From NCBI GenBank assembly GCA_027627225.1, contig JAPFQT010000035.1, positions 783,501 through 847,500 on the forward strand: 64,000 nucleotides of DNA, given 5' to 3'. Shown in pieces: positions 576 through 47,117 of this stretch. The translations under genes and the position numbers were made by a program. The notes below the pieces were generated by a model, which saw only the letters and a program-made list of their open reading frames with translations, had not been told where the DNA came from and did not search any database. The DNA is from Congeria kusceri. Taxonomy: Eukaryota; Mollusca; Bivalvia; Myida; Dreissenidae. How positions within the stretch are numbered: position 1 is the stretch's first letter; the number at the start of each line of letters is the position of its first letter.

Positions 576-810
576 CTGCGTCCACGGCGAACGCCCGGGT
601 GTGGTTGATGGCGGTTCTGCAGATGTAGAACATGGGGTGGATGGCGGGAACCACGTGCGACACGTCGCCCATGTCGGTGGAGCCCGTGGCCTCCTTGTAG
701 GCGTCCGGAACCCTGTCCGGCTGGACACGTGATAGGTTGGCCGAGTAGACGTCCGCCAGGACGTCGTTGTGAAGGACGGAGGAGTATTTGGTAATCACGG
801 ACTGCTCGAA
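576..810 (-). CDS. PM20D2: PM20D2-like M20 peptidase, exon 6 (C-terminal part of catalytic domain)
   Basis: This exon encodes about 78 residues running from FEQSVITKYSSV to AFAVDAG. The M20 peptidases of the PM20D2/ACY1L2 group are metal-dependent dipeptidases; mammalian PM20D2 hydrolyses beta-alanyl-lysine-type and Xaa-Arg dipeptides. Seen here are STDMGDVSHVVPAIHP and NHT, which match the C-terminal STDxGNVSxxVPxxHP and the late metal-binding His of the family. The acceptor is TTGACCCTTCAG before 810 and the donor is GCAG/GTGAGAC at 576/575. The exon is 235 bp, starts in phase 0 and leaves one base, so at least one further coding exon is expected left of the window. It follows exon 5 (2944-3098), whose end is also phase 0. 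It has no internal stop and is much more GC-rich than its surroundings. Family assignment is confident; orthology to PM20D2 rather than a bivalve paralogue is inferred. Confidence 0.9.
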
Positions 811-874
811 CTGAAGGGTCAACGAACATTAACTTATTAGTGTTTTCCTACCTCCTACTCCTACAGTTCGATTA

Positions 875-1015
875 TTGCACAAACAAACAGTTTTCACACC
901 ACATTTAGTTTTCATCCCATATTCAGTTCTCTCACAAAAATCAGCCCGTCCCCCCAACCACCAAATTCATTTCTCGCACAAAATCCAGTTCTCACCCCAC
1001 ATTCAGTTTGATGTC
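875..1015. repeat. Degenerate ~30-bp minisatellite near the exon 6 acceptor
   Basis: Four or so diverged copies of a motif like CACAAAATTCAGTTCTCACC follow each other about 65 bp upstream (gene sense) of exon 6. Spacing is irregular, near 30 bp. It is another short tandem array beside an exon of this gene, although here it does not touch the splice site. Confidence 0.5.
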
Positions 1016-1146
1016 CGTTACGGTACGTATACAACTACAACAAGTGCCATTGTCACAAAGATACGCCCGTCAAAGAAGCTTTTGCGGGGTTAAGATTCAA
1101 TGACTAAAGAGAAACAATTCAAAAACTAATAAGGTAGAGTCATGGT

Positions 1147-1790
1147 ATTCAATGTGTTTTCAATCTATTGAGCGGAAACCGTTGTTTTTTTTTAGTAAAA
1201 GTGACCTTGACCCCACCCACCCTATATGCAATCCCAAGCGAGGTCTCAATATAAAGTATCTATTTATGAAGTTTAATCAAAATATCTCCATTTGTTCTAA
1301 GTTGTTGAGCGGGAATCGTTTTTCCACTTTTAGTAATGATGACCTTGACCCCACCCACCCCATACGCAATACTAAGCGAGGGCTTGATATAAGGTATCTA
1401 TGTACGCAGTGTCATTAAAATATCTCAATTCGATCTCGAATTATTGAGCAGAAAACGTTTTCCTATTTTTAGTAACAGTGACCTTGATCTCAACCCCACC
1501 CACCCCATATGCAATCCCAAGCGAGGTCTCGATATAAGGTATCCATGTATTAAGTTTCATTAAAATATCTCAATGTGGTTTCAAGTTATTGAGCAGAAAC
1601 TGTTTTTATATTTTTAATCACAGTGACCTTGACCTTGACCCCACCATCTCATATGCAATCCAAAGCAAGGTCTTTCAATAAGGTTTCTAGGTATGAAGTT
1701 TCATTACAATAGCTCAATTCGTTCTCGAGTTAGAGAGCGGAAACGAAAAGTTGACGCTGCCACTACGCCTTTGACCTTGAATTGTGACCT
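1147..1790. repeat. Internally tandem element, ~145-bp units ('ccccacccacccc' type)
   Basis: Four diverged copies of a ~145-bp unit. Each contains GACCTTGACCCCACCCACCC, then ATGCAATCCCAAGCGAGGTC, TATAAGGTATCTATG, TTTCATTAAAATATCTCAAT and GAGCGGAAACCG. Homologous units recur at 41880-42310. No coding potential. It lies in the intron between exons 5 and 6. Confidence 0.75.
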
Positions 1791-2660
1791 TAATCTAGGA
1801 CCTAGGGACCTGGTTCTTGCACACGACACTCCGCATCACCATGCTAGTCACTTCTGCTAAGTTATTTAGAAATCCGTCCATGCTGGACAAAATTTGCTCC
1901 AGACAAAGTGATTACGATTTATTTCTTAAATTTGACCTTGAATTGTGACTTTGACCTTAGACCAAGCGACCCGGTTCTAGCTCGCGACACTCTCACTATG
2001 CTTGTCACTTCTGCCAGGTTATTTGAAAATCCATCCATGCTGGACAAAGATTTGCTCCGGATAAAGTGTTTAGGAATGATTTTTTAAATGTGACCTTTGA
2101 CCTTGAATTGCGACCAAGACCTTGGATCTAGGGACCTGGTTCTTGTGCGCGACACTCCGTCTTACTATACTTGTCACTTCTGCCAAGTTATTTAAAAATC
2201 CATTCATGCTTGACAAAGATATGCTCCGGACAATGTGGTAAGGATTGATTGCTTATATTTGATCTTTGACCTTGAATTGTGACCTTGATCTTTGACCCAG
2301 GGACCTGGTTCATGCGCGCGACACTCCGTTCCATCATGCTTATCATTTCTGCCAAGTTATTTGAAAATCCATCACGGCTGGCCAAAGTTATGCTCCGGAC
2401 AAAGAGTTAAGGATTGAATTCCTATATTTGACCTTTGACCTAGAATTGTGACCTTGACCTTGGACCTAGGGACATGGTTCTTGTGCGCGACACTCCGTCT
2501 CATCAAGCTGATCACTTCTACCAAGTTATTTGAAAATCCATCCAGGCTGGACAAAGTTGTGCTCCGGACAAAGATCTCCCGCCGCCCGCCCGCTCGGGCG
2601 TTCCCATAATACGGCCGTTTTTCAAACGGGCGTATAAAAACTAGAAATGTGTCCATAGGA
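1770..2660. repeat. Internally tandem element, ~155-170-bp units ('gaccttgaattgtgacc' type)
   Basis: Five diverged copies of a unit with TTTGACCTTGAATTGTGACC, AGGGACCTGGTTCTTG, GCGCGACACTCCGT, CACTTCTGCCAAGTTATTTG and CTGGACAAAGATATGCTCCGG, at steps of about 156-170 bp. It ends in a GC-rich tail (CCGCCGCCCGCCCGCTCGGGCG near 2578-2600) followed by an inverted CGGCCGTTTTTCAAACGG motif. Probably one non-autonomous element built from tandem units. Confidence 0.75.
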
Positions 2661-2943
2661 CACTAATGCCCCCGCTGATTGGGACGGATCCGTGGTCTCG
2701 TGGTAACGCAGGTTTCATCCCCAGCTAAACCATAACCTCGTACTAACTCGTCTATCGCATGAGACGTTAAAGTTAAGGTGCAGTGTACTAGGTGCTTCAA
2801 ACCGGGTACTAAAAGGCCCAGGGTCGCCTCTGGAACGGGGCGTCTTCTGTTTCTTTCACAATCCCCCGTAACCAAACTATCAAGTATTTTGGGGCGACGA
2901 CCATATGGATGAGAATCTCTATAAATATTCACCACACACTCAC

Positions 2944-3098
2944 CTGACATTCCGTAGCCTTGCCGGCGGCCTCGATAGCGTTCAGAACTTTCTCCTTCAG
3001 GCGGCAGAGTTGCGTGTCCGTCGGCGCCCTGATCCCCACGTGCAGCCGCGTCCTCGCCGGAATGATGTTCACTTTCACACCGCCTTCCAAAATGATAC
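2944..3098 (-). CDS. PM20D2: PM20D2-like M20 peptidase, exon 5 (dimerisation/lid domain)
   Basis: Encodes 51 codons plus a split first codon: GIILEGGVKVNIIPARTRLH and on to AAGKATECQ. The GII..GGVKxNIIP motif is the start of the inserted M20 dimerisation domain in PM20D2 relatives, followed by the usual xxxxRAPT and helix. The acceptor is TTTTTGAAG/GTATC at 3099/3098 and the donor is TGTCAG/GTGAGT at 2944/2943, a strong consensus. Phase fits exon 4, which ends with a lone C, and exon 6, which starts in phase 0. No internal stop. A partial second copy of its acceptor and first ~33 bases sits upstream at 3174-3217. Confidence 0.88.
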
Positions 3099-3173
3099 CT
3101 TCAAAAAGAAGTTAATAGAAACGTATATTTTTTCAATCTAATCTCCACTTGAACAATTTGTTATACGTATTCA

Positions 3174-3217
3174 ACATGTTCACTTTAACACCGCCTTCCA
3201 GAATTATACCTTCAAAA
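3174..3217 (-). repeat. Partial duplicate of the exon 5 acceptor region
   Basis: On the minus strand, TTTTGAAGGTATAATTCTGG followed by AAGGCGGTGTTAAAGTGAAC repeats the exon 5 splice acceptor and its first ~33 coding bases with a few substitutions. It lies about 119 bp upstream (gene sense) of the real acceptor. Homology stops where the exon would continue, so it is not a whole exon. Confidence 0.8.
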
Positions 3218-3219
3218 CG

Positions 3220-4790
3220 ACATAAATCGCTACCGTAATTACTCTGTATGTTGCGACACTTTAAAATAATAATAAAAATTTGCTGTCCCAATTTTTAGAA
3301 GCAGAAATAAAAATTCCCGTGAATGTGTCGCACTATTTAGAACCATCAATTGGGGTCCAAACCAATTATGTGTAAAGTTCAATTGCGTAATGGGTGTGTA
3401 TTTTAATCCCTATAAACAAGCAAATCACAGTGGATATAGATCTATGCCCCAGGGTAAGTAATTTATGACACGCCGACAAGGGGCCACATTGATAGGGTCA
3501 GCTCTCATGAGATATAGATATAAGGAGTATCCACATGCGCATTCACAACTTTGACAGTGTGCTAATATATAATAATATAATTTAATGTCGTTAGATGGTG
3601 ATTTTTAACTGCCAACTTTATGGAAATTTACACCATATTATCGATTTGGAAAAAAATTGCCCCAAAATTTAGAAACACGAAAAATTCTAATTTTCAAAGT
3701 GTCCTAAAATTAAGAGTTCAGAAAATAGCTATTTTATCGCATTTTAAGTGTGTCCTAACATTTAGTGTGTCCCAACATATAGAGTAATTACGGTATGTCA
3801 AATTTTCACTCTAGCCATGCTAATGTGCAACAACAGATTATACGGTTAACTAAACACATATACAGCAATTTAATCACAAGGATATCAGCGAACTTGTGGA
3901 TACTCTCCTATGCGCTTTGCCAAGTAATGAGAATGCAATCAAAAAGGCAGAGATATTAAAATAACTAAAAACTACTAGAGCTGCAGGACGAAATATGCTG
4001 TAAAAATGTATTTGAGCTACAATAAGTGACATCATACAAACATTAAGAGTATCACCGAATTTCATACAGCATAATTATGATAAAGAAGTTGGTCAGAAAC
4101 AGCCCAGTAAAGTATTGTGCATTATAAACTTATTGCAGCGATCTTCAAAGGCCAATATATAATGCAAGAAAGGTCAATGATGCGGAACGCGCTGTTATTG
4201 TGCACACCCTGTCGTGGTTATGAAGCTTCCCATAGTTTCGTTGAGTTCTGGCTTGTAGTTGCTGAGACACAGTCCAGTCCAGTCAAGAATTTTAAACTAT
4301 ATATTAATTGCAGCAACCTTCCAAGTCCCATAACTCCAAGAAAAATCACTGAAACGTAACGTCCTGGTGCTGTGCACACCTCCTGGTGATAATGAAGCAT
4401 CACATAAAGTTTCAATGTATTCTTCCAGTAGTTGCGGAAAAAAAGTCCGGACAAGAATTGTGCACTATATACTAACTTAGGAAATCTTATAATTCAATAA
4501 CTCTTAGAACACCTCCTCTTGGTAATGAAGCATGAATTCTGGCCAGTAGTTGCGGAGAAACACTCCGCACAAGAAAATGTCTCGGACGGACTGACAGACG
4601 GACGGACGAACAACACGGGGACTGTATGCTCCTCCGAAAAAGAATTCGGGCAGTAAAATAATGGTGGGCAATACCCTAATTAATTAATTAAGTAGACAGC
4701 ACTTGGAAAGTGCACACCTTCACCTGCGTAGCCGCTTTGCCATATCACCAAAATCTTACAATTTCTTCATTTAAGAAATATTTTCCGTTT
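3220..4790. other. AT-rich intronic DNA without recognised genes
   Basis: No open frame here has family resemblance. The part 4110-4640 holds 'ccataactcc... gaagcttcccatagtttc' units and a short GACGGACGGACG tail near 4595, so it is a diverged internally repeated element like those further right. The rest shows nothing. Confidence 0.4.
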
Positions 4791-5095
4791 TAGAATTGTT
4801 TATCGGCTAATACACAACGATGTGTCGTTCTGATGCGGTATATTAAACTACACGGGCTAGCGCCCTCTTCGTTTAGTTCCTACGCATCAGAACTTAAAAT
4901 CGTTGTTTATTAGCCGATAAACAAAGATAATGCGAACATTATTTCGAGTCCTACATGACCTGACAAAATATTATGCAATTGCAATTTTTTTCAGTTTCGG
5001 AAATATTTGTTTGTTGGTAGTTTAACAACGGTAAATTTTGTTCATTGTTTATAGAAAACACTGCGCGTGTGATGTTAGAATAGTCCATTTCAATT
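4790..5095. repeat. Foldback element, single-hairpin copy
   Basis: TTGTTTATCGGCTAATACAC and CGTTCTGATGCG are answered by CGCATCAGAAC and ATCGTTGTTTATTAGCCGAT, giving nested inverted repeats. These are followed by the family's right flank (ACATGACCTGACA, GCAATT, TTCAGTTTCGG, TAGTTTAACAACGGTAAATT, TTTATAGAAAACAC). The same modules occur near 33.1, 33.6, 36.6-37.5, 39.6, 47.1-48.1, 58.3 and 60.4 kb. Confidence 0.75.
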
Positions 5096-5127
5096 TTTCC
5101 CATGCAAATCCGTTCACAAAATTCGTA

Positions 5128-5495
5128 AAATTGCTGACAAACTAACGCCCGCAAAAGCATAACATGCTTAGCGGAGGTAAAATTTATAACAGATTGACAA
5201 ATTAACGCCCGCAAAAGCACAACCTGCTTAGCGGAGGTAAAATTGGTAACAGACTGACAAACCAACGCCCGCAAAAACATAGCCTGCTTAGCGGAGGTGA
5301 AATTGCTAACAGACTGACAAACCAACGCCCTAAAAAGCACAACTTGCTAAGCGGAGGTAAAATTGCTATCAGACTAACAAACCAACGCCTGCAAAAGCAT
5401 AACCTGCTTCGCGGAGGTAAAATTGATAACAGACTGACAAACTAACGCCCGCAAAAGCATAACCTGCTTAGCGGAGGTATAATTACTAACGATAA
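5128..5495. repeat. 60-bp tandem array, ~6 copies
   Basis: The unit is GACAAACCAACGCCCGCAAA then AGCATAACCTGCTTAGCGGA then GGTAAAATTGCTAACAGACT, 60 bp, repeated about six times with low divergence. Because 60 is a multiple of three it leaves an open minus-strand frame with a 20-residue repeat. I take that as a by-product of the period, not a gene. Confidence 0.9.
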
Positions 5496-5511
5496 ACTAT
5501 TCTTTACACAT

Positions 5512-5848
5512 ATTGCACCTATCAATAATGTAACCCAGGCGGGGAAGCGGCGAGCATATACGGGACTTTAGACTGACAGCGATTCCCGATAGGCGGGAAT
5601 TTGACACGCCGAATTATTCCGGGTCCCAGGAAAATAAACTTTAGTAGGATTTTTTAGATCCCGGTAATATTGGCCCCCGGCCCATTGATACCCCTATAGC
5701 ATCTCACACTGAGGAGATTTAGACAAAAATGCTAGGCTCTAGGGTGGTGAATTAAACCCCAAAACTAAAATTTGTCAAATGCCCTGGGTCAGCCCGTCGC
5801 TCCCCCCCCCCCCCCCCCCCCCGTTGAGGGAAATACTGATAGGTGCAT
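5512..5848. mobile_element. Non-autonomous TIR element (TGCACCTATCAAT family), ~340 bp
   Basis: The ends are inverted copies: TTGCACCTATCAATAATGTA on the left and ACTGATAGGTGCAT on the right. Inside lie an inverted pair of GC-rich blocks (GCGGCGAGCATATACGGGA / CGTCGCTCCCCC) and a long poly-C run at about 5801-5822. Other copies are at 48563-48870 (opposite orientation) and 45205-45402 (partial). No open frame; a MITE by structure. Confidence 0.75.
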
Positions 5849-6550
5849 ATCCAAGAATAAATAAAATGTATCATGTCCTGGGTCCATATCCACAAAGCTC
5901 CTCAGTGAAAACTAAGTACATTCCTAAAAACTATAATACAGTCCATGGCTGGTTCATAGAAATTGTATTTTGTCTTAAACGTTGTTAATCCGGTAAAGAC
6001 TTGACAAGTGCTTCGTAATTTACAATATTTCAAATATAAAATAATACTATTCACAAGTAATAATTTAGTCGATTTTTTCCCAAGTGTGTGGCAGTTTTAT
6101 GTACGTCTTTTCGCCTAAAAATGTTTTAAACGAGCAAATCTTGCTTTACAAAAATCATTGGATTTCATATAGAATATATTTTCTGAAATACATATCTATT
6201 CACAATATATGTACACCTTAAGATTTCCCAATCTCCGCACATACATTTGACTGGTTCAGAGCATAGCTCAAATCAAATCCCTGCCGTCATTCCAAACCAC
6301 GTGATAAAGATCGATTAAAGTATTCTAATAATTTTTTATTGTTATAATTATTTATTTTCTTTCTTTTATTTTGCACGACTACAAACTATACATAAAATGT
6401 CCAATTATGTAGGACGTAATCAGTCCAGCTTTATGAAGGATTTTACTAGTGACAGCAGTGGTTACTGTTAACCGATAGGGAAGGTAATCGCTGCGAGGAG
6501 TTGGAAAATTTCGATTGGCTGGCCCCAGCTACCCCCTGTTCTTTTTTGCC

Positions 6551-6752
6551 GGGGCGGCTAGCTCAGTTGGTAGAGCGCTGGACTACAAATCCGAGGATCG
6601 CGGGTTCGATTCCCAGCCCGGCCACATAACTGGTGTGGGGATTGGTCATGAAATTATTTCTACGGCCATTCTCCCCCTACCTCTGATTCAAGTAGGACAG
6701 TTGTCAGTTACTGGCATATGTATGTGCACTTAGTACTGGTAAACCAGCTTAC
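6551..6752 (+). mobile_element. tRNA-derived SINE abutting PM20D2 exon 4
   Basis: The head 6551-6627 is tRNA-like: GGCTAGCTCAGTTGGTAGAG resembles box A and GGTTCGATTCCCAG contains box B. The acceptor stem pairs only in part and the T stem is defective, so I do not call a functional tRNA. The body (GATTCAAGTAGGACAGTTG, TTACTGGCATATG, GTGCACTTAGTACTGG) resembles molluscan SINEs as I remember them. The tail runs to about 6752, exactly where PM20D2 exon 4 ends in the opposite sense. Confidence 0.7.
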
Positions 6753-6859
6753 GCAGACAGGCCAGCCCCTGATAGCATATGACGGCGTCAAGGGCGTTGA
6801 CCCCTTTCCACGGATATCCGGCGGCGTGCGCCTCGCTGCCATGGTACACCACTTCTAGT
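6753..6859 (-). CDS. PM20D2: PM20D2-like M20 peptidase, exon 4 (metal-binding AHAA region)
   Basis: Encodes LEVVYHGSEAHAAGYPW, KGVNALDAVICYQG and LACLR. SEAHAAxYPWxGxNALDA is the invariant M20 motif carrying a His near the active site. The acceptor is AAATTACAG/ACTAG at 6860/6859. Exon 3 ends in AT, and the joined codon ATA reads through cleanly as ...AIEILEVVYHG. The best donor is CTGC/GTAAGC at 6753/6752, whose phase fits exon 5 (CTG C/GT ATC). Compared with vertebrate PM20D2, about ten residues expected between LR and GII are missing. Reading on past the donor gives KLVYQY then a stop, inside the SINE. The SINE therefore seems to have replaced the exon's 3' end and to supply the present donor. 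The acceptor sequence is the same as the monomer of the adjoining 38-bp satellite. Confidence 0.85.
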
Positions 6860-9820
6860 CTGTAATTTAAACACAGCGCTAGCACTTAACTTCCAGTCTG
6901 TAATTTAGACACAATGCTCGCATAAAACTTTTGGTCTGTAAATCAGACACAGCGCTCGCATTTAATTTCCAGTCTGTAATTTAGACACAACGCTCGCATA
7001 AAACTTCAGTCGGTAAATCAGACACACAACTCGCATAAAACTTCTAGTCTGTACATCAGCCACACCACTCGCATAAAACTTCTAGTCTGTACATCAGCCA
7101 CACCACTCGCATAAAACCTATATTCTGTAAATCAGACACACCACTCGCATAAAACTTCTACTCTGTACATCAGCCACACAACTCGCATAAAACTTCTAGT
7201 CTGTACATCAGCCACACCACTCGCATAAAACCTATATTCTGTACATCAGACATCCCCCTCGCATAAAACCTCTATTCTGTAAATCAGACTACACCACTCG
7301 CATAAAACTTCTAGTCTGTACATCAGACACACCACTCGCATAAAACTTCTAGTCTGTACATCAGACACACCACTCGCATAAAACTTCTAGTCTGTATATC
7401 AGACACACCACTCGCATAAAACTTCTAGCCTGTACATCAGACACACCACTCGCATAAAACTTCTAGTCTGTACATCAGACACACCACTCGCAGAAAACTT
7501 CTAGTCTGTACATCAGACTACACCACTCGCATAAAACGTCTAGTCTGTACATCAGACACACCACTCGCACAAAACTTCTAGTCTGTAAATCACACACCCC
7601 ACTCGCATAAAACTTCTAGTCTGTACATCAGACACACCACTCGCATAAAACTTCTAGCCTGTACATCAGACACACCACTCGCATAAAACTTATAGTCTGT
7701 ACATCAGACACCCCACTCGCATAAAATTTCTAGTCTGTACATCAGACACACCACTCGCATAAAACTTCTAGTCAGTACATCAGACACACCACTCGCATAA
7801 AACTTCTAGTCTGTACATCACACACCCCACTCGCATAAAACTTCTAGTCTGTACATCAGACACACCACTCGCATAAAACTTCTAATCTGTAAATTAGACA
7901 CACCACTCGCACAAAACTTCTAGTCTGTACATCAGACACACCACTCGCATAAATCTTCTAGTCTGTACATCAGACACACCACTCGCATAAAACTTATATT
8001 CTGTACATCAGACACCACCCTCGCATAAAACCTCTATTCTGTAAATCAGACACACCACTCGCATAAAACTTCTAGTCTGTAAATTAGACACACCACTCGC
8101 ACAAAACTTCTAGTCTGTACATCAGACACACCACTCGCATAAATCTTCTAGTCTGTACATCAGACACACCACTCGCACAAAACTTCTAGTCTGTAAATCA
8201 CCCACCCCACTCGCATAAAACTTCTAGTCTGTACATCAGACACACCACTGGCATAAAACTTCTAGTCTGTAAATTAGACACACCACTCGCACAAAACTTC
8301 TAGTCTGTACATCAGACAAACCACTCGCATAAAACTTATATTCTGTAAATCACACACCCCACTCGCATAAAACTTCTAGTCTGTACATCAGACACACCAC
8401 TCGCATAAAACTTCTAGTCTGTACATCAGACACACCACTCGCATGAAACTTCTAGTCTGTACATCAGACACACCACTCGCATAAAACTTCTAGCCTGTAC
8501 ATCAGACACACCACTCGCATAAAACTTATAGTCTGTACATCAGACACACCACTTGCATAAAACTTCTAGTCTGTACATCAGACACACCACTCGCATAAAA
8601 CTTCTAGTCTGTACATCAGATACACCACTCGCATAAAACTTATATTCTGTACATCAGACACCCACCTCGCATAAAACCTCTATTCTGTAAATCAGACTAC
8701 ACCACTCGCATAAAACTTCTAGTCTGTACATCAGACACACCACTCGCACAAAACTTCTAGTCTGTAAATCACACACTCCACTCGCATAAAACTTCTAGTC
8801 TGTACATCAGACACACCACTCGCATAAAACTTCTAGTCTGTAAATTAGACACACCACTCGCACAAAACTTCTAGTCTGTACATCAGACACACCACTCGCA
8901 TAAAACTTCTAGTCTGTACATCAGACACACCACTCGCATAAAACTTCTAGCCTGTACATCAGACACACCACTCGCATAAAACTTCTAGTCTGTACATCAG
9001 ACACACCACTCGCAGAAAACTTCTAGTCTGTACATCAGACACACCACTCGCATAAAACTAATATTCTGTACATCAGACACACCACTCGCATAGAACTTCT
9101 AGTCTGTAAATCAGACACACCACTCGCATAAAACTTATAGTCTGTAAATTAGACACACCACTCGCACAAAACTTCTAGTCTGTACATCAGACACACCACT
9201 CGCATAAAACTTATATTCTGTACATCAGACACCCCACTCGCATAGAACCTCTATTCTATAAATCAGACACACCACTCGCATAAAACCTCTATTCTGTAAA
9301 TCAGACACACCACTCGCATAAAACTTGTAGTCAGTACATCAGACACACCACTCGCATGAAACTTCTAGTCTGTAAATCAGACACACCACTCGCATAAAAC
9401 TTATAGTCTGTAAATTAGACATACCACTCGCACAAAACTTCTAGTCTGTACATCAGACACACCACTCGCATAAAACTTATATTCTGTACATCAGACACCC
9501 CACTCGCATAGAACCTCTATTCTATAAATCAGACACACCACTCGCATAAAACCTCTATTCTGTAAATCAGACACACCACTCGCATAAAACTTGTAGTCAG
9601 TACATCAGACACACCACTCGCATGAAACTTCTAGTCTGTAAATCAGACACACCACTCGCATAAAAATTCTAGTCTGTAAATCAGACACAACACTCGCATA
9701 AAAATTCTAGTCTATAAATCAGACACACCGCTCGCATTCAACTTTCAATCTATAAATCAGACACAGCGCCCGCATTTCTAGCCTGTAATTCAGGCACAAC
9801 GCTCGCATAAAACGTCTGCT
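6860..9820. repeat. 38-bp satellite, ~75 copies, abutting the exon 4 acceptor
   Basis: The consensus plus-strand unit is CTTCTAGTCTGTACATCAGA + CACACCACTCGCATAAAA (38 bp). Units next to the exon are longer and more diverged; the core from about 7030 is homogeneous. A higher-order repeat of seven monomers (266 bp) is doubled at about 9095-9360 and 9361-9626. On the gene strand each unit holds TGTACAGACTAGAAG, the same as the exon 4 junction TTACAG/ACTAGAAG. The whole array lies in intron 3. Confidence 0.95.
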
Positions 9821-10681
9821 AACACATGTAGACCACATATCGTCCATTGATTGCCGAAAGGGCCAATCATCATATGTGCAAAGAAGGGTGATAGGCCCGT
9901 TTGGCTTTCAATGGACGAATTATAGTCTACCGACAGAACGCGATATCAGAGTTGTGTATATTCTTGATGTTTGTAACATTTACGAATTAAATATAAAAAT
10001 AACATCAAAGCGATCAAAGGATAGAGAATAAGTTGGTATCTTATTAATGTTCTTTACTTAAACATTTTAATACGGAATAATGAGCATGTTTTGAACCGAA
10101 TTAGGAACCCAAGTAATCTATCTTACTGTATAAAAGTGAATGACGTAGAATCTAACCGAACATCCTGAAGATAAAGTACCGGTAATGTTCATTTGTATAT
10201 CCTCCCTTTAACGATTAGGCGTAAAAAAAGTTGTTTGTTTCCGTTTGCCCGACCCCCTCCAATTTTTCCCCCGACCCTAAATTTATTTTTGCCTATCAGG
10301 CATAAACAATTTCTGACTGTCGGGAAAAGATAGCAGTTTTCTCTTATAAATTTCTTGCCAGAAATCTTTCAATGACCTTAGTTATAGTTCTTTGTTGGGA
10401 GGCGTTTAAACAGTTTACATGCAGTCCAATATACTTAAATTGTGTGTGGCGAATAGGTGGCTAAAAGAAAAGAAGTTAAAGAAAAAAAAGTTATATTGTA
10501 CCACCCCTCCTAGACTTTTTGGGAGATGTAATCGGAAACCAACCATTTATTGTTTTGGCCTTACCGGTAATGAAAATTTCATAAAATAATTGTATTTGTA
10601 TCATTTTATTTATTAAACCAAACCAAACACAAAAGTTGTGAAAAAAACCGAATAGGGAGAAACATCGGTTGGTATACACAC
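9821..10681. other. Intronic DNA without recognised genes
   Basis: AT-rich sequence in intron 3 between the 38-bp array and exon 3. Near 9830-9925 a short segment (CATATCGTCCATTGATTG ... CAATGGACGAATTATAG) folds back on itself. I see nothing else. Confidence 0.4.
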
Positions 10682-10831
10682 ATTTCAATAGCCAATGCTC
10701 GCGGTTTGACGCCATTCGCCGGAAACGGATGTGACATCATCGCGACGTCTACGTCATCGAATGCGCCATGTTCTATAAGTTTGACCCTTTCCCCCACCCC
10801 CTTCCTCGGCCGGTGTGCCCATGACTGTCAC
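10682..10831 (-). CDS. PM20D2: PM20D2-like M20 peptidase, exon 3 (catalytic Glu pair), frameshifted
   Basis: The acceptor CATCGCAG precedes 10831. The exon reads VTVMGTPAEEGGGGK and then VKLIEHGAFDDVDVAMMSHP, FPANGVKPRALAIE. GTPAEExGGGK contains the Glu pair (catalytic base and metal ligand) of M20 peptidases. The two parts are in different frames: the run GGGGGAAAGGGTC (around 10782-10795) has one G more than a continuous frame allows. The donor is GAAAT/GTGTGT at 10682/10681, and the split codon AT/A with exon 4 works. Exon 2 to exon 3 is phase 0. The extra G could be a real lesion or a homopolymer error, since it lies among runs of G. Confidence 0.87.
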
Positions 10832-10934
10832 CTGCGATGTAAAGTCGACATCAATATCAGCGGTAGTGATCGATGCGTGCGCATTTAATTATGATTTACA
10901 TGGATGATCTGGAAATAGAAGACATATAGGAAAT

Positions 10935-11250
10935 TAATTTTGTTGGTTTCGGTAGAATATCGATAATATTGCAGCCACGAGTGGAAATATATATTTTCGA
11001 TGATCACGAGTGAATAAAAAATCGATATTCTACCGAAAACAACAAATTTCATTTTTATTGTAAGCCATTTCCAAACAATCTTGAGTCCGGCATCGTTGAC
11101 GATCCAATTCATTCACTGTATTAAATCGGGAACCAGTGTGAAACAGTGAACATTACCAGAGTGGTAATTTTGACCGTTTTAAAACAGTCAATTAAAAATT
11201 TTCTGATATTTCCCTATAATTTACTGGAAAGCATAAAATAAATGTATGTA
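10935..11250. repeat. Dispersed element with hairpin head
   Basis: GTTGGTTTCGGTAGAATATC at 10942 is answered by GATATTCTACCGAAAACAAC ending at 11043, a hairpin with 23-base arms. Then come GAGTCCGGCATCGTTGACG, TTAAATCGGGAACCAG, GTGAAACAGTGAA and ACCAGAGTGGTAATTT. The last modules recur at 15480-15660 and 25340-25520. Confidence 0.7.
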
Positions 11251-11293
11251 AACGATTAAAAGCGTAAAGAGCTAAGGTGGTTTCCTTATAATG

Positions 11294-11763
11294 CAGTGCT
11301 CCATATAAGCTTTTGTAGTGGGAGTAAATGTACGCTTACTTCTAAAAATTTGGGAGTAAATATACACTATCTCGAGAATTTATGGGGGTAAATGTACACT
11401 CGATGTAGGATAATCGATGGTAAACTTGCACCTAACTAAACTTTACAGTTGACATTAGAGAGAAAGAAAAACAACCGTATTATTACAATAATCTTTAATA
11501 ATGTAGCGACACCATTTGAATAACAATAATGATACAAGTAAGAATTCTGAACATTTTATTAATTGTATTGATATCTAAACTATGCATGCCTGTGAAAGCT
11601 TCTATCTTCTATAGTTTTCCAGTCATTACAATGTGACGTAATGTACGCGAGAAAATTGTGCGTAAATGTACCCCCAAATATTTTTTGTGTGTGCGTATAT
11701 GTACACCAAAATTTCATATTTCACTGCGTAATTTACGCGTGTAAGCGCCTTATCTGGGCTTCT
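11294..11763. mobile_element. Non-autonomous TIR element (GTGCTCC..ATAAGC family), short copy
   Basis: The left end AGTGCTCCATATAAGCTTTT and right end GCGCCTTATCTGGGCTTCT are imperfect inverted copies. Sub-terminal modules GGAGTAAATGTACGCTTAC, GGGGGTAAATGTACACTC, GTGCGTAAATGTACCCCC and TAATTTACGCGTGT are shared with the copy at 51180-51988. Copy B of the large duplication begins inside this element at the base equivalent to 11697. Confidence 0.7.
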
Positions 11764-11829
11764 GACTTATGTCCTATGATTCGCATAAACTGCTATACTG
11801 CCGCTGTTTTTGCTTGAATACATATCAAA

Positions 11830-12435
11830 TCGTACCTGACAGGTGTACACATTATAACTAGTTAAATTCACAGTTCCTGAGACAGTGTTCACGTTAGAAC
11901 TATCCCAATTCACAGCTCCTGACCCAGTGCACACATAGGAACTAGACAAATTCACAGTACAAGACACAGTGAACACATTAGAACAAGCGAAATTCACAGT
12001 ATTTGATCTAGTGTGCACATTAGAACTAGCAACATTCACAGTACCATACCCAGTGTACACATACGAACTAGCGAAATTTACAGCATCTGACATTGTGCGC
12101 ACATTAGAACTGGCGAAATTCACAGCACCTGACCCAGTGTACACATACGAACTAGCGAAATTTACAGCATCTGACATTGTGCGCACATTAGAACTGGCGA
12201 AATTCACAGAACTCAGCCCAGTGTACACATAAGAACTAGCCAAATTAACAGCATTTGATCTAGTGTGAACATTAGAACTAGCAACATTCACAGTACCTGA
12301 CCCAGTGTACACATAAGTACTAGCGAAATTTACAGCTTCGGACATTGTGCGCACATTAGAACTAGCGAAATTCACTGAACTTGGCCCAGTGTACCGGTAC
12401 ACATTAGAACTACCGAAATTAACAGTACACAGTAA
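11830..12435. repeat. 42-bp satellite derived from the exon 2 donor (copy A)
   Basis: About 14 units of 42 bp, of the form GTGTACACATACGAACTAGC + GAAATTTACAGCATCTGACA + TT, with alternating variants. On the gene strand many units contain CTGGGTCAGGTACTGTGAAT, nearly the same as the exon 2 donor region CTGGGTCAG/GTACAGTGAAT. As 42 is divisible by three, long frames stay open on both strands (211 residues on minus, with a 14-residue repeat). I do not call these genes. Confidence 0.9.
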
Positions 12436-13427
12436 GAGGTGGGGACATTCACGGTACCTGACCCAGTGTGTACATTACAACTAGCGAAATTCACAGTACA
12501 CAGTAAGAGGCGGCGAAATTCACAGTACACAGTTAGAGGCGGGTAAATTAACAGTACACAGTAAGAGGCGGCGAAATTCACAGTACACAGTAAGAGGCGG
12601 GGAAATTCACTGTACACAGTAAGAGGCGGCAAAATTCACAGTACGCAGTAAGAGGCGGCGAAATTCACAGTACACAGTAAGAGGCGGCGAAGATCACAGT
12701 ACACAGTAAAAGGCGGCGAAATTCACAGTACACAGTAACAGGCGGGGAAATTTACTGTACACAGTAAGAGGCGGCGAAATTCACAGTACACAGTAAGAGG
12801 CGGGGAAATTCACTGTACACAGTAAGAGGCGGCAAAATTCACAGTACGCAGTAAGAGGCGGCGAAATTCACAGTACACAGTAAGAGGCGGCGAAGATCAC
12901 AGTACACAGTAAGAGGCGGGGAAATTCACAGTACACAGTAAGAGGCGGAGAAATTCACAGTACACAGTAAGAGGCGGGGAAATTCACAGTACACAGTAAG
13001 AGTCGGGGAAATTCACTGTACACAGTAAGAAGCGGGTAAATTCACAGTACACAGTAAGAGGCGGCGAAATTCACTATACACAGGAAGAGGCGGAGAAATT
13101 TACTGTACACAGTAAGAGGCGGGGAAATTCACAGTACACAGTAAAAGGTGGGGAAATTCACAGTATACAGTAAGAGGCGGGGAAATTCACAGTACACACT
13201 AAGAGGTGGGGAAATTCACAGAACACAGTAAGAGGTGGGGAAATTCACCATACAAAGTAAGAGGCGGGTAAATTCACAGTACATAGTAAGAGGCGGGTAA
13301 ATTCACAGTACACAGGAAGAGGCGGGTAAATTCACAGTACACAGTAAGAGGTGGGGAAATTCACAGTACACAGTAAGAGACGGGGAAATTCACTGTACAC
13401 AGTAAGAGGCGGGGAGATTCACTGTAC
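12436..13427. repeat. 29-bp satellite directly abutting the exon 2 donor (copy A)
   Basis: About 34 units of CACAGTACACAGTAAGAGGC + GGGGAAATT (29 bp), homogeneous with CGGCG/GGGGA variants. The last unit ends at the GT of the exon 2 splice donor: on the gene strand the intron starts GTACAGTGAATCTCCCCGCC, which is itself the first monomer. It grades at its far side into the 42-bp satellite. Confidence 0.95.
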
Positions 13428-13634
13428 CTGACCCAGGGGATTCCCGGAAGCTTCTATTGCCGCCTTCAGCCCCAGCCCCGACGCTGCTCCTGACTCACCT
13501 ATCAGGTTGTGTCCGCACGCGTGACCTATTTCCGGAAGTGCGTCATATTCGCTGATGAACGTCACGTTGGGACCGTCAGCGCGTGACCCGTGGGAAGCCC
13601 TAAACGCCGTCTTGAGCTTGAAGGAACGCTGGGT
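13428..13634 (-). CDS. PM20D2: PM20D2-like M20 peptidase, exon 2, copy A
   Basis: A 207-bp phase 0/phase 0 exon of 69 codons: TQRSFKLKTAFRASHGSRAD, GPNVTFISEYDALPEIGHAC, GHNLIGESGAASGLGLKAAI, EASGNPLGQ. ISEYDALPEIGHACGHN is the first metal-binding motif of M20D-type peptidases, with the Cys and His of HACGH. The acceptor is CATATTCAG/ACCC at 13635/13634 and the donor is GGTCAG/GTACAG at 13428/13427. It joins exon 3 (VTVMGTPAEE) in frame. No stop. The frame stays open upstream through the 48-bp satellite, giving a 158-residue frame that I treat as a by-product. A near-identical copy lies at 23439-23645. Confidence 0.92.
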
Positions 13635-14165
13635 CTGAATATGACGTAAAATCATGTCGTACAGACGTGAATATATGACAATTCTATAATGGCGTACAAG
13701 CATGCCGTAGACACGTGAATAGTTAAAGATTCTATAATGGCGTACAATCATGACGTAGAGACGTGAATAGTTAAAGATTCTATAATGGCGTACAATCATG
13801 CCGCAGAGACGTGAATAATTAAAGATTCTATAATGGCGTACAACCGTGCCGTACAAACGTGAATAGTTAAAGATTCTATAATGACGTACAATCATGTCGA
13901 GCAGTCGTGAATATATGAAGATACTATAATGGCGTAAAATCGTGTCGTACAGACGTGAAAATAAATTATGAAGTATCTATAATGGCGTACAATCATGCCG
14001 TACAGACGTGAATAGTTAAAGATTCTATAATGATGTACAATCATATCGTGCAGTCGTGAATATATGAAGATTCTATAATGGCGTAAAATCGCGTCGAACA
14101 GACGTGAATATAAATTATGAAGATTCTATAATGGCGTACAATCATGCCGTACACAAGTGAATATG
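13635..14165. repeat. 48-bp satellite abutting the exon 2 acceptor (copy A)
   Basis: About 11 units of GACGTGAATAGTTAAAGATT + CTATAATGGCGTACAATCAT + GCCGTAGA (48 bp). The unit nearest exon 2 carries the acceptor: on the gene strand ...ATTTTACGTCATATTCAG/ACCC, against ...ATTGTACGCCATTATAGAAT in other units. The minus frame is open through part of the array with a 16-residue repeat (MIVRHYRIFNYSRLYG) in frame with exon 2. Confidence 0.92.
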
Positions 14166-14384
14166 TGAAGATCTAGTAAGTGACCACAAATACGTGAATT
14201 CATTGTTTCAATCAGGGATTATTACGACCAGCGCGGATTTAGGTGATTTTGGAGTAAGAGTGAAAAAGTCATTTCCTACCAACCCATACATGTTAAACAT
14301 GTATACATTTTGCAAAACAATGACAGTTACATTGCGCGATATCATAGTTAAAGCTTTTTTGCAGATATTTAAAACGTGTCCACG

Positions 14385-14661
14385 GTTTCCGTGGCCTAGT
14401 GGTTAGGGCGTCGCCTAGTGGTTAGGGCGTCGCCTAAGGAGCGGGAGGCCGAAGGTTCGAGTCCTACACAGGGCGAGTTCTGATATGGCCGGTTGCCTAC
14501 CCAGCAGCTAGTTAAATCAAGGGGTACCGATTGCGTTCCTGCCAAGCGCCCGGCATATAGGATAGGAATCTGGAGTAAAAATGTTCATCAGTGAAGGTGT
14601 CTCATAAGTCAAAACTGGCTGGCCCTTAATCGCGAGGGGTGACACTATAATAAACTAACAC
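14385..14661 (+). mobile_element. tRNA-derived SINE (copy A) with doubled box A segment
   Basis: GTGGCCTAGTGGTTAGGGCG is a box-A-like start and GAAGGTTCGAGTCCTAC contains box B. The body continues GGGCGAGTTCTGATATGGCC, GGTTGCCTACCCAGCAGC, AAGGGGTACCGATTGCG and TATAGGATAGGAATCTGGAG to about 14661. The segment CCTAGTGGTTAGGGCGTCG occurs twice in a row, unlike the copy at 54803-55060. Orientation is opposite to PM20D2; it lies in intron 1. Confidence 0.8.
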
Positions 14662-14904
14662 TTTTTTACTTTACTATTTAAAAACGTGTGCTTACCAATC
14701 ATTATTAGCAGACAGAGAATGTTTCACTTATTCAAATAATTTGAGCATTTTTACGGTGGAGCTGGGGGGGGGGGGGTACGGGATGTATGCTTCCGCTTCC
14801 GCTCCACTGTAAATCCGCAAATAACTACTAAAGGCAAGCTTAGTTTTGACATTTTGACAACAATATTGTTTTATTTTCTGTAACACGTTATAAGTACTTA
14901 TCAC

Positions 14905-15071
14905 CTCGAAAACGTGTTTCTCTAGTCTGTTAGCACTTTGTGTGCGTGGCGCTCCTCAAAGTTGAGTTCCGGATGTTCCCAAATTTCGGCGCTGAGTGTC
15001 GCCAAGTCGCCGGCGGCGGCATCGATGGCCGCGCACGCCACTTACTTGAGTCGCTCTCGCTCGGCGGCCAT
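14905..15071 (-). CDS. PM20D2: PM20D2-like M20 peptidase, exon 1 (N-terminus), copy A, broken
   Basis: From ATG at 15071 the frame reads MAAERERLK, then TAA (15044-15042), then VACAAIDAAAGDLATLSAEI and WEHPELNFEERHAHKVLTD. The second part matches the PM20D2 start (IDxAAxxLxxLSxxIWxxPELxxEExHAHxVLT). After LTD the frame hits TAG; LEKH.FE continues in another frame up to a donor GAG/GTGATAAG at 14905/14904, whose phase 0 fits exon 2. So there is one nonsense codon (CAA-like to TAA, which also makes a GTAAGT) and one frameshift near 14925. Both are shared with copy B, so they predate the duplication and are unlikely to be read errors. The start is the first ATG in frame and lies below a full CRE site. 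Confidence 0.8.
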
Positions 15072-15144
15072 GTCAAGGCAGTGGTCGGTGATTTGTTCGC
15101 GTGGATGGAGGCGGAAGTGTTTGGTAGTGACGCAACAGCGTTGA

Positions 15145-15152
15145 TGACGTCA
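15145..15152. promoter_or_regulatory. Full CRE (TGACGTCA) upstream of exon 1, copy A
   Basis: The palindrome TGACGTCA lies about 75 bp upstream of the exon 1 ATG, with a half-site-like GTGACGCAAC beside it (15127-15136). It fits a CREB/ATF site in a proximal promoter. No TATA box was seen. Promoter role is inferred. A second TGACGTCA is at 15469-15476. Confidence 0.45.
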
Positions 15153-15309
15153 TACTGGTGGAATATGCAAAATATGATAACGTTTGACCGATATTCAAGG
15201 TATTAATAATAATTATTTATTTTACTAAGGAATCTCATTAAGACAATACATTGAAACAAAGTAATAGTAAACGCGAAATAATGGCAATCTCTTTTACGGT
15301 AGTGTTAAT

Positions 15310-15660
15310 TAATCGAGGATATTTGTTGATTTCGGTGTAAGATCGTATTTTATTCCACGAGTGTTCGTAGAAAATATCTTTTGCCACCTTTGTAAGATTT
15401 TAATTGTTATATAATTGGGTTTTATTGGAAAAGCTCGCGGGATTCATAACATCATGACGTTAAAATAATGACGTCATTTCATAATGTTGAGTCCGGCATC
15501 GTTGACGGTCCGTTTCATTTACTATATTAAATCGGGAACCAGAGTGAAACAGTGAAAATTACCAGAGTGGTAATTTCCACTGTTTTAAAACAGTGAAATA
15601 CCAATTTTATTTCACTGATATTTCATGATAAATCATTGGAAAGCATAAAATAAATAATAA
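15310..15660. repeat. Second member of the GAGTCCGGCATCGTTGACG element family
   Basis: TTGATTTCGGTGTAAGATCG, CCACGAGTGTTCGTAG, GAGTCCGGCATCGTTGACGG, AAATCGGGAACCAGAGTGAA and CAGAGTGGTAATTTCCACTG match the copy at 10935-11250. Here the hairpin arm is degraded. Confidence 0.65.
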
Positions 15661-18600
15661 TGTTCGTTTGCGGGCCTTTAACATCACTTATAAAGAGAAA
15701 GGTTACTGTGAAGCACGGCTATTAAAAGTAATTTTAATCAGAAAAACAACAAAAATCAATGTTTTAAACATTCAGTTCTGTATAATGATGTTTCTACAAC
15801 GGAAAGCGTTATGTACCCGTGGTTTATTTTGCAAATATTCGCACGTTAGATAAGAAGACATGAAAGTAGATACTTAAATATTAGTTTTTGAGCATTGCTA
15901 TTTGTATGGGTGGTTTATCAAATCTCGCCCGAAATAAGACAAGAAATGTCTTTAAAAAAGACAATCGGCGTTGACATTAATATACCGAGATACCATTTTT
16001 ACCCTAAACATAAGATAACAAGAGGGTCAAGATGGTCGGTTACGTGGCTTCTCGGACCCCAGATTTTTCGGTCTCAAGCTATATAGGGGGACTTCTCGGA
16101 CCCAGGTTTTTTGGGAAACCATAAGAAAACGTTTTGAATCCCAAAATTAATTTGTGATTAATTCAATAATTATTAATATTTGTACGGTAAATAAACCGAT
16201 CATACCGCCCCATGTTTTCACCAGTGATACATGAATAACCTAAATAATTTACGTAAACATCATTATTATATAAATGTGTCAGCCAAATTTAACAAAATAA
16301 CATAACAATGTACGAAAATAATTGCGGGAATTAAAGAAAAATATTTTTTATCAGATTATCGTATAGTCATTCTTAAGTAATATACCCTACCTACATCTTG
16401 GAAGTTATTTATGCATAATACATACGCATTTCGAAGTCCATTTTTCATTTATAGGCTAAAACAAGTCAATGATTTGTTTCCCAGGCAGCGCCGTAACGTA
16501 TTTTTATGGACGCCACGAATTTGATTTTATGCCAAAAGGAATTATTTTTCTACTATTTTTTGACGATCGCGCCCGGGTTTTAAAGGAGCCGTCCAGAAAT
16601 ATGTTAATAAAAATGAAACTTTGTAGAAAGTTTTTCTAATGGGCATGTTACCGAACAAAATAACAAAACTACGCAATTGAAATCCGTGAATTATTAACAT
16701 TGTGGTAACTTGCTGTCGTCTATTTTCTGTATGCGATAAATGGTGATGACTCTGGAGTAAACCAGTACGTACATTATAGTATTTCGTTCGTACCAAGCGC
16801 TTTTGAACAATGCCTTTCGTAAATAAGAAACATATTCCGGACGAATAAACACCATAAACGTTCAAAAGAACTATTACTAAAATTACGATGTATTGATGGC
16901 CAGCGGCTTAAAGTTAAACGAATCCGCATTTTAACATAGCGGAAGAAGAGTAGATATTTCTGTATTTTCAGTAACTTTTTTCCTGTCTGAAATACTGCGT
17001 AAATTTTGAAAAAAAAGTCATATTCGATTGGGAACCTTTATAAATATGTTCTATTTCATGATTTAAACTTTTGTTTCGTACATGCTTTTGCTTGAATAAT
17101 ATTTCATAATTTCACTCCATATTTTTTAAAGAAAATCTGTGTCAATATAAGTCCTATGGAAACAATCGAAAATGCCAGCTGCATTGACAAGTGTTGATTT
17201 TCCTTTCCAAAAATAATTGGTGATTTACTGCAAAAATAATTTCTATTTTTGACAGTTATAAAAAATATGAAGTACGAAAGGTTAAATTCTACAAACAAAT
17301 ACAAGTATTTTAATGCTGATGGTGTATCAGTTTGAAGGCACTTTGTTAATTATGAACATTCGAATTGATTGCCTTTTTACATCAGCTTTCATAAATGACG
17401 GTTTGTGATTAATAAATCTATATTTAGAATTTAAAAAAAGGAATGCCTATGTTGTTATTAAAACTTAATATTGTCTTTAATCTGTACTTAATTACTTGTT
17501 TTACTAAGCCAATAGAAAAGAGTAGGAGAAAAAATACTTCGATTAAAAAAACTCGCCCTCCCTCCTGACTTTTTGGAAAAAGTGCCTGAGAAACAATGCA
17601 TTATTTTTCTTTAGCAGTATACCCTGTATCCTAATGAAAAGCAATCTTCAGAGAACATTCAGCGCATTTAAAACAATGATGACTTCCATTTTGATAGCAC
17701 AAAATTAAATTTCATCAGACTATGGCGATTGAAAATTATATTCGGTAGGAACATGATGTATCAAGGGTTTCTGTGCATAATTGGTTGTGCAAATCACGTA
17801 TTCGTGCAAATGAAGTAAAAGTAACACGAATAACATGTGAACGTATTCAGAGACTTATTTCACCACATTTTATTTATTGAAAGTTATCTTTTTATAGGTT
17901 GATTAACATCTACTGGAGAAGTTGATAAAAATCTGTAATTCACATTAATTATTAACAGAACGCAACCACAGTTCAATTTCAAATAGACATGCAGTCAGTT
18001 TAATAACATAAATTCCCCCATTATTGAAATATTTGCTCTTATGATTCTCTGGACGCTAACTGATGCATACATATTATAACAGCTATACACCGGCGGCTAA
18101 ACGAGAACTATTTTTAGAAAGATCGTGAGTGTATTGAACTCGCTAGAATCAATTGTTATTTATAGAGCGTACCGCTAGTCTAAACAAACTAGTTGATTAA
18201 TTCTGGGAATGAACATAATAATTATTATGTTCATGACATACAATGAGAAAATATGTTCATACTTATGCTCAGTTCTAGAGTGTATATCGAAAATATATTT
18301 ATAACTTTATTTTAACCGCTTATGTAAACAATTATGTAAATTTTAAATCCCCAAAAGTATGCAACAGTTATTGGTATACGTTAAACCATTGTTTGAAGTT
18401 TGCATTCCCTAAAATTATAAAATTTGCCCAATTCTATTGGCATTTAATTTTCCCGCTGCATAATTATCGCAAGAATTCTAGGTCAAAAGTGACCTTAGAC
18501 AGCTACGCCGAAAAAAGAAAGCAAACACAATTCAATTTCAAAGCAACAACTATAGTAAAGTATATGGTATAGAAATGACATAATACATTTCACATATAGA

Positions 18601-18681
18601 GAACAGTTATTTCCATCTATTTACTGTTCCCTTAACTGAAATCAAGAATAACTACATCCATTACTTACATAAATAGACACT
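15661..18681. other. AT-rich non-coding DNA (copy A)
   Basis: No open frame with family resemblance. It is repeated at about 25522-28477 with a few percent divergence. A palindrome GAACATAATAATTATTATGTTC lies near 18211-18232. Given the minus-strand gene, this lies 5' of exon 1A and inside the intron following exon 2B. Confidence 0.4.
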
Positions 18682-19383: not shown

Positions 19384-19974
19384 TAACTCTGTTAACTTCT
19401 GTGGCAGAAAAATCCAATAAACAAATACATTCAAAATTTCAAATTGGTGATTAACATAAAATAATACAACCTGCTATAAAGCCTACTGCGTAGTATTAAA
19501 ACACTTTAGTCTATAAACAGATTTTTATTTCCGTTTATTTCCGTGAACGAAAGCAATATTTGAAACTGAAATTGACAATGATGAATGAAGAAAGAAACTA
19601 GTAAAAAGATATTTAAAATGCTACAACAGTAAACAAACAATATACACAATTAATTATACAATATAGAGCATACATACATATAAAAATTATATAAATACCA
19701 ATATTTTTAACCCTATCAAAAGTTAGATAAATACCGTTAAACATTTAAATCAGAAATATAATCAAAGTAAAATGATGTCTCCTCACACAAACATTTTGTG
19801 TCGAGTGCACAGCGAAACTGTGTATGAATATATTTGCAACCTCTCGCTCAAAGCGACCGAAAGTCGCTATACACTGCTGCGGACGATACGCCAGTTTTCC
19901 GCTGAATGGTGACACAACCAAACATAATCACCACTGATATGAACAGTCATAAAATATCCGCGAGGAGGTGTTAT

Positions 19975-20900: not shown

Positions 20901-21067
20901 TTTATGTTACTTGATTGTAGTCGCCCGTAAGAAACACAGTATACATTCAACAATGTCAGAATGCGGTCCATAATAAACTACTAAAAATAAAATTTCAAGC
21001 AATTCGGTGTAACGATATCATCAATGTCCAGTAGACACGGTGTTTTCACAAAATAACAACAGAGCAC

Positions 21068-47110: not shown

Positions 47111-47117
47111 TCGATTT

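What the first reader, a model, noticed from the sequence alone, without database searches (positions are those of the whole stretch)
576..14165. General pattern: minisatellites start at splice junctions of one gene
Exon 4 acceptor, exon 2 donor and exon 2 acceptor each touch a tandem array; exon 5 has a duplicated acceptor; exon 6 has a degenerate array near its acceptor. Periods differ (38, 42/29, 48, ~30), so these are independent births. I know of no named process that makes tandem arrays nucleate at exon-intron borders. Candidates are R-loop or co-transcriptional breaks, or selection removing arrays anywhere except beside exons. This is the strongest candidate for something undescribed in the window.
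Basis: inference. Interest (0 to 1): 0.88.

Follow-up and report, generated by a model that had tools for sequence, protein, structure and literature searches.

The report
Splice-site "mirage" repeats in mussel gene
An apparently broken peptidase gene, likely from a relative of the zebra mussel, carries tandem repeats whose units contain the gene's own exon-intron borders; the same pattern is already known and named ("mirages") in lancelets, and it is likely tolerated because the extra copies would be spliced out.

Summary
The window holds a minus-strand Xaa-Arg dipeptidase (M20) gene, 81% identical to a Dreissena polymorpha protein. The 42-bp array's consensus carries the last 9 nt of exon 2 plus the donor. 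The 38-bp array carries the acceptor plus the first 9 nt of exon 4. A two-copy duplication (111 bp apart) carries the exon 5 acceptor plus 34 exon nt. The 29-bp array starts at intron base 1 in the same block as the 42-bp one. The 48-bp array abuts the exon 2 acceptor without exon sequence. The exon 6 "array" lies 77 bp away. Three of the gene's four blocks of period 20-60 bp touch junctions (1 of 20,000 random placements; post hoc). The monomers occur elsewhere in the window only in a 10-kb segmental duplicate. Tandem repeats spanning exon-intron borders are published as "mirages" in amphioxus Adh3, TnC, globin and PGBD5 genes; human IFI6 has a minisatellite supplying splice donors. The gene looks disabled, so splicing is inferred only. 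New here: a likely bivalve case with several in one gene. The genome-wide test was impossible: the genome service did not complete.

The parts
6753..6859 (-). exon 4 of the M20 dipeptidase gene; its first 9 nt (6859-6851) are part of the 38-bp array
   Evidence: tblastn to P0001; junction position; TRF
6851..9813 (-). 38-bp minisatellite, ~78 copies, spanning the exon 4 acceptor (mirage type, 3' splice site); consensus ...TGTACAG|ACTAGAAGT...; 51 sites match AGA(C/T)T(A/G), 49 of them reading ACAG at the acceptor position
13428..13634 (-). exon 2 (HACGHN motif and the SEYDALP and PLGQ stretches)
11843..12394 (-). 42-bp array, ~13 copies, consensus CACTGGGTCAG|GTACTGTGAATTT...: last 9 nt of exon 2 plus the donor (mirage type, 5' splice site); distal end closes with a partial copy CTGTCAGGTAC
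12486..13427 (-). 29-bp array, ~32 copies, starting exactly at intron 2 base 1; unit GTAC(A/T)GTGAATTTCCCCGCCTCTTACTGT; shares GTACTGTGAATTTC with the 42-bp unit
13641..14163 (-). 48-bp array, ~11 copies, ending 6 nt before exon 2; no exon 2 bases seen in its unit (abuts, does not span)
2944..3098 (-). exon 5
3065..3267 (-). two-copy duplication (111 bp apart) of the exon 5 acceptor: 34 nt of exon 5 (3098-3065, copy 3209-3176; 31 identical) plus a diverged intron tail; the upstream copy lies in the intron
10682..10831 (-). exon 3, with a frameshift; no array at either border
576..810 (-). exon 6; nearest listed repeat 77 bp from its acceptor
14905..15071 (-). exon 1, with an in-frame stop and a frameshift near its end; both also in the duplicate copy
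11697..21768 (-). first copy of a ~10-kb tandem segmental duplication carrying exons 1-2 and their arrays
21766..31568 (-). second copy of that segment (97.7% identical over 9714 aligned columns); same arrays, different copy numbers of the 29- and 48-bp ones

Best explanation
These are border-spanning tandem repeats of the kind named mirages: their units contain an exon-intron border of this gene (9 nt of exon 2 with its donor, 9 nt of exon 4 with its acceptor, 34 nt of exon 5 with its acceptor), and they likely arose by tandem duplication across the border, likely grew by slippage or unequal exchange, and were likely tolerated because the outermost border would still splice correctly. SHOWN: units contain exon bases in register with the junction; the exon 2 and exon 5 bases encode residues conserved in Dreissena and Mya, so there the sequence ran from exon to repeat (weaker at exon 4, where relatives vary); the monomers occur nowhere else in the window except the segmental copy; copy number of the 29- and 48-bp arrays differs between the two segmental copies. 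INFERRED: birth by slippage between short direct repeats (GTCAGGTAC lies at the exon 2 donor and again at the far end of the 42-bp array); splicing from the first donor and to the last acceptor, so that extra copies become intron; relaxed constraint, because this gene copy looks disabled. UNTESTED: whether splice junctions attract such births genome-wide.
For: Border-spanning words repeated only in the adjoining arrays: the 13-mer at exon 4, 37 copies beside the border copy; the 10-mer at exon 2, 8 places in all, 4 per segmental copy. Exon-in-unit matches in register; 9 contiguous matches past a border have a chance of about 4^-9 (own arithmetic). Conservation of exon 2 and exon 5 stretches. 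In-situ origin: the 38-, 42-, 29- and 48-bp units hit only themselves, the hybrid stretch at 12447-12500 and the segmental duplicate. Instability of the block: 5 of 7 indels of 15 bp or more between the segments fall in the 29- and 48-bp arrays. Placement excess. Published mirages at both 5' and 3' boundaries, units of 10-160 bp, many copies with AG/GT signals, RT-PCR suggesting undisturbed splicing, length instability. Minisatellite birth from 5-10 bp flanking repeats (Haber and Louis 1998 as summarised in PMC6947457).
Against: A free search for the longest exact match between each unit and any exon is not significant: 42-bp unit 9 nt, reached by 42 of 200 shuffles; the 38-bp unit's longest match is a 10-mer in exon 1, not exon 4, reached by 4 of 200. 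Only 3 of 13 42-bp copies hold all 9 exon bases and only 2 of 13 keep AG|GT (one of its 14 rows is off register and was dropped). At exon 4 the copied codons (L-E-V) read F-E-V in D. polymorpha and L-D-V, L-E-I and I-E-A in the three Mya sequences, so direction is less sure there. Copy-number change is not shown for the border-spanning arrays themselves: the 42-bp array has no indel of 15 bp or more, and the 38-bp and exon 5 repeats lie outside the duplication. Two of the five array indels (29 bp each, opposite sign, 13256 and 13293) may be one alignment artefact. The 48-bp array holds no exon sequence. No RNA evidence. Confidence was lowered from 0.85 to 0.82 on recheck, because the instability and the exon 4 direction are weaker than first written.
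Confidence: 0.82

Rival explanations
1. Splice junctions are active hot spots of minisatellite birth (R-loops, paused polymerase, co-transcriptional breaks).
For: Three of the four blocks of period 20-60 bp inside the gene touch a junction; 1 of 20,000 random placements did as well. Repeated reports in lancelets suggest recurrence.
Against: One gene, chosen because it looked odd; no genome-wide rate. Eight of 11 borders have no array within 10 bp, one of them (exon 5 acceptor) carrying only the two-copy duplication. R-loop features were not tested.
Confidence: 0.15
2. The arrays are parts of mobile elements (Helitron-like or introner-like) that inserted at AG|GT sites and brought repeats with them.
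For: Several other arrays in the window are dispersed: the 26-bp family at four places, 145-bp at two, 164-bp at three. A direct repeat (GTCAGGTAC) brackets the 42/29-bp block.
Against: The junction arrays are single-locus in the window apart from the segmental copy, though so are four arrays away from the gene's exons (60-bp, 31-bp at 51701, 156-167-bp, 27-bp); units hold this gene's own exon bases.
Confidence: 0.06
3. Arrays arose inside introns by chance, and the exon edges later adopted array sequence as splice sites (array before junction).
For: Fits the 48-bp array, whose unit reads TATTCACG where the exon 2 acceptor reads TATTCAG. Possible for the 9 nt of exon 4, where relatives vary.
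Against: The repeat-matching bases of exons 2 and 5 encode residues conserved in Mya and Dreissena.
Confidence: 0.12
4. Coincidence: repeat-rich DNA, with arrays that happen to end near exons.
For: 19 arrays were queried in this 64-kb window; shuffled units often give 9-mer matches to some exon.
Against: Placement test; border-spanning words repeated only in the adjoining arrays; a 34-nt exon copy at exon 5.
Confidence: 0.05

Closest known systems
Amphioxus 'mirages' (globin BflGb6/BflGb9, Adh3, TnC, PGBD5)
   [quoted passage not shown]; Adh3 and TnC only as cited there)
   Different: Here a likely bivalve, three in one gene with up to ~78 copies, in a gene copy that looks disabled; no RNA test of splicing, and no copy-number change shown for the border-spanning arrays
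Human IFI6 (6-16) minisatellite giving multiple splice donors (Turri et al. 1995)
   Same: A minisatellite whose units act as splice donors (PMC4526556 passage citing it; original not held)
   Different: In IFI6 two downstream repeat units are used as donors; here use of decoys is unknown and 11 of 13 42-bp copies lack AG|GT
Internal tandem repeats at exon-intron boundaries of human segmental-duplication genes
   Same: Minisatellites (average ~30-bp units) at exon-intron boundaries of duplicated genes (PMC2812944, passages)
   Different: There they are linked to new introns and alternative transcripts; here no new intron is seen
Intron gain by tandem genomic duplication (potato RdRp)
   Same: Tandem duplication in a gene, with AGGT among the terms found in the paper (PMC4974935, search listing only)
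   Different: Here introns that already exist appear lengthened; no intron gain is seen

Membership tests
Mirage minisatellites | Tandem copies of a segment that crosses an exon-intron border | tested here: met
   42-bp (exon 2 donor), 38-bp (exon 4 acceptor), two-copy (exon 5 acceptor). Not met by the 48-bp array; the 29-bp unit starts at intron base 1 with no exon base
Mirage minisatellites | The unit's exon part derives from the host gene's exon | tested here: met
   Conserved codons at exons 2 and 5, less clear at exon 4; monomers absent elsewhere in the window apart from the segmental copy
Mirage minisatellites | Copy-number instability | tested here: inconclusive
   Seen for the 29- and 48-bp arrays between the two segmental copies, not for the 42-bp array; the 38-bp and exon 5 repeats lie outside the duplication. 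No population data
Mirage minisatellites | Regular splicing undisturbed | not testable with these tools
   No transcripts; gene copy looks disabled
Introner / transposon-made introns | Same element dispersed at many loci | tested here: inconclusive
AGGT tandem-duplication intron gain | A new intron at a position absent in relatives | not tested

The most novel reading that the evidence does not exclude
Splice junctions are a general, phylum-spanning birthplace of minisatellites: splice motifs recurring near real junctions serve as the short direct repeats that seed slippage, so the same structure arises independently in lancelets, vertebrates and bivalves, and the exon edge leaves its signature in the monomer.
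Probability: 0.2. Interest if true: 0.7.

Novelty: new member of a known kind. Interest (0 to 1): 0.4.

Why it matters
It would carry a structure reported in lancelets to a likely bivalve and shows three in one gene, one with ~78 and one with ~13 units. That makes the rule 'border-spanning duplications are tolerated because they would be spliced out' testable genome-wide in a repeat-rich mollusc, and gives the monomer itself as a fossil of the exon edge it came from.

Tried and rejected
Exon 6 as a fifth case: rejected, 77 bp away. Exon 2's arrays in the second segment as independent births: rejected, segmental copy. Five independent periods: reduced, because the 42- and 29-bp units share a core. 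Transposon origin: not supported inside the window, untested outside it. Coding role of the open arrays (42-bp array within a 235-aa frame; 48-bp array continuous with exon 2): the 42-bp frame had no homologue at E<=0.001 among 7428 candidates; a repeat whose unit is a multiple of three and has no stop stays open however long it grows. Free exon-match test: not significant. Search for the 11-residue segment that homologues carry between exons 4 and 5: best score 15 in intron 4 (3.6 kb) against 28 in a larger background (32 kb), so not found. The repeat finder returned only the 38-bp array and added nothing. Unused: one of three protein searches, the viral and genome collections, structure and RNA-family tools.

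Literature: ten searches. I saw no report of mirages in molluscs in those listings (one search listed 20 of 70 hits, one search listed 20 of 26). I read passages of nine papers: PMC12783039, PMC4526556, PMC2572611, PMC3087553, PMC2812944, PMC6905558, PMC3902484, PMC6947457, PMC9210306; none in full. The library omits most subscription journals.
Full report
What the gene is. A 65-residue translation of exon 2 matches HmrA and Xaa-Arg dipeptidase structures (3 distinct sequences at E<=0.001). A 296-residue conceptual protein hits a Dreissena polymorpha xaa-Arg dipeptidase-like protein at 81% identity, then three Mya arenaria proteins at 60-62% (best 120 listed). The window is therefore likely from a dreissenid bivalve; no call names the organism. 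The gene lies on the minus strand. Borders: exon 1 15071-14905, exon 2 13634-13428, exon 3 10831-10682, exon 4 6859-6753, exon 5 3098-2944, exon 6 810-576.

The gene copy looks disabled. Exon 1 has an in-frame stop and a frameshift near its end, both in each of the two segmental copies; exon 3 has a frameshift; an 11-residue segment that the homologues carry between exons 4 and 5 was not found. Assembly error could explain a single-base indel, but hardly the lesions shared by the two copies.

Which contacts hold. The 38-bp array (6851-9813, ~78 copies) overlaps exon 4 by its first 9 nt: gene ...ATTACAG|ACTAGAAGTGG, array consensus ...TGTACAG|ACTAGAAGTTT. The 13-mer ACAGACTAGAAGT occurs 38 times in the window, once at the border and 37 times in the array. 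The 42-bp array (11843-12394) has consensus CACTGGGTCAG|GTACTGTGAAT against the gene's CCCCTGGGTCAG|GTACAGTGAAT: 9 of 9 exon bases and 10 of 11 intron bases. Of 13 in-register copies (one search printed 14 rows, one off register), 3 hold all 9 exon bases and 2 keep AG|GT; a further stretch at 12466 holds both. The 29-bp array (12486-13427) fills the space between and starts at intron base 1; its unit shares GTACTGTGAATTTC with the 42-bp unit, so I count one block. At exon 5, 34 exon nt (31 identical) and a diverged intron tail occur twice, 111 bp apart. The 48-bp array (13641-14163) ends 6 nt before exon 2 and shows none of its bases. The exon 6 repeat lies 77 bp off.

Chance. Placing arrays of period 20-60 bp at random outside exons, three junction contacts within 10 bp occurred in 1 of 20,000 trials (four blocks, 576-15100) and 0 of 20,000 (five blocks, 1-21768). 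Adding the 145/169-bp arrays as one block gives 4 of 20,000 (five blocks) and 0 of 20,000 (six blocks). At 25 bp tolerance the same four settings give 5, 0, 24 and 4 of 20,000. In that test the 38-bp block was trimmed to the intron side, the 42- and 29-bp arrays were merged, the exon 1 donor was set half a base off, and the two-copy exon 5 case and arrays of period under 20 bp were left out. It is post hoc. A separate test, the longest exact match of each unit to any exon, is not significant: 42 of 200 shuffles reach the 42-bp unit's 9 nt, and the 38-bp unit's longest match is a 10-mer in exon 1 (4 of 200), which I cannot explain except as chance. In-register overlap at the border is what carries weight.

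Direction. Exon 2's repeated bases encode LGQ, found in D. polymorpha and two of three Mya sequences (the third, P0004, lacks that stretch); exon 5's encode IILEGGVKVN, identical in P0001-P0003 with one change in P0004. At exon 4 the codons read L-E-V here, F-E-V in D. polymorpha and L-D-V, L-E-I and I-E-A in Mya (all). So the exon supplied the sequence at exons 2 and 5, and probably at exon 4. The 38-, 42-, 29- and 48-bp units occur nowhere else in the window except a hybrid stretch beside the 42-bp array and the segmental copy. Of 19 arrays queried, ten others hit further places outside their own segmental copy, but four arrays away from the gene's exons (60-bp, 31-bp at 51701, 156-167-bp, 27-bp) are also single-locus, so this speaks against a mobile origin without proving it.

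Dynamics. A 10-kb segment (11697-21768) with exons 1-2 and three arrays is duplicated in tandem (21766-31568), 97.7% identical over 9714 aligned columns. Of 7 indels of at least 15 bp, 5 fall in the 29- and 48-bp arrays (87, 29, 29, 29 and 149 bp); two of the 29-bp ones have opposite sign and lie 37 bp apart, and may be one alignment artefact. The net change is about 2 units of the 29-bp and 3 of the 48-bp array. The arrays thus predate the segmental duplication. The 42-bp array shows no such indel.

Mechanism. Step 1 (inferred): a duplication that crosses a border, by slippage or unequal exchange between short direct repeats; GTCAGGTAC stands at the exon 2 donor and again at the array's far end, the arrangement described for minisatellite birth (Haber and Louis, summarised in PMC6947457, passage). 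Step 2 (inferred): the outermost border would still give the right mRNA, so copies on the intron side are likely neutral. Step 3 (shown for the 29- and 48-bp arrays only): later gain or loss of units. Step 4 (untested): any special affinity of splice sites for such births.

What is known. PMC3087553 (passages) describes the same structures in amphioxus globin genes as 'mirages', at both 5' and 3' boundaries, with RT-PCR suggesting normal splicing, and says the generating mechanism is unclear. PMC3902484 (passage) adds PGBD5 and cites Adh and TnC. PMC4526556 (passages) cites Turri 1995 for the IFI6 minisatellite with multiple splice donors. PMC2812944 (passages) treats minisatellites at human exon-intron boundaries. 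So the kind is known; a bivalve case did not appear in the listings of my searches (one search listed 20 of 70).

Limits.

Noticed in passing
11697-31568: Tandem segmental duplication of ~10 kb (97.7% identity over aligned columns), junction near 21766.
   Followed up: yes
34383-35025, 38658-39059, 50417-50673, 55120-56677: One dispersed family of 26-bp (13-bp based) CAACCA-type arrays at four places.
   Followed up: partly
13641-13976: The 48-bp array is open in the same frame as exon 2 (16-residue repeats such as RLYGMIVRHYRIFNYS).
   Followed up: no
3176-3209 vs 3065-3098: In the duplicated exon 5 head all three differences within the 34 exon nt are synonymous, so one copy may have diverged under constraint.
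   Followed up: no
14905-15071: Exon 1 holds ACAGACTAGA, a 10-mer also in the 38-bp unit of intron 3 (4 of 200 shuffles as long); unexplained, perhaps chance.
   Followed up: no
51701-51856: Five copies of a 31-bp unit, 98% matching: likely a young array, single-locus in the window.
   Followed up: no
6552-6625: ARAGORN calls a tRNA-Cys (anticodon aca) in intron 4; it may be a tRNA-derived SINE head.
   Followed up: no
4801-4922: Inverted-repeat stretch read by eye (TTATCGGCTAAT... / ...ATTAGCCGATAAA) in intron 4; a relative of 4771-5080 lies at 47097-47404. MITE-like.
   Followed up: no
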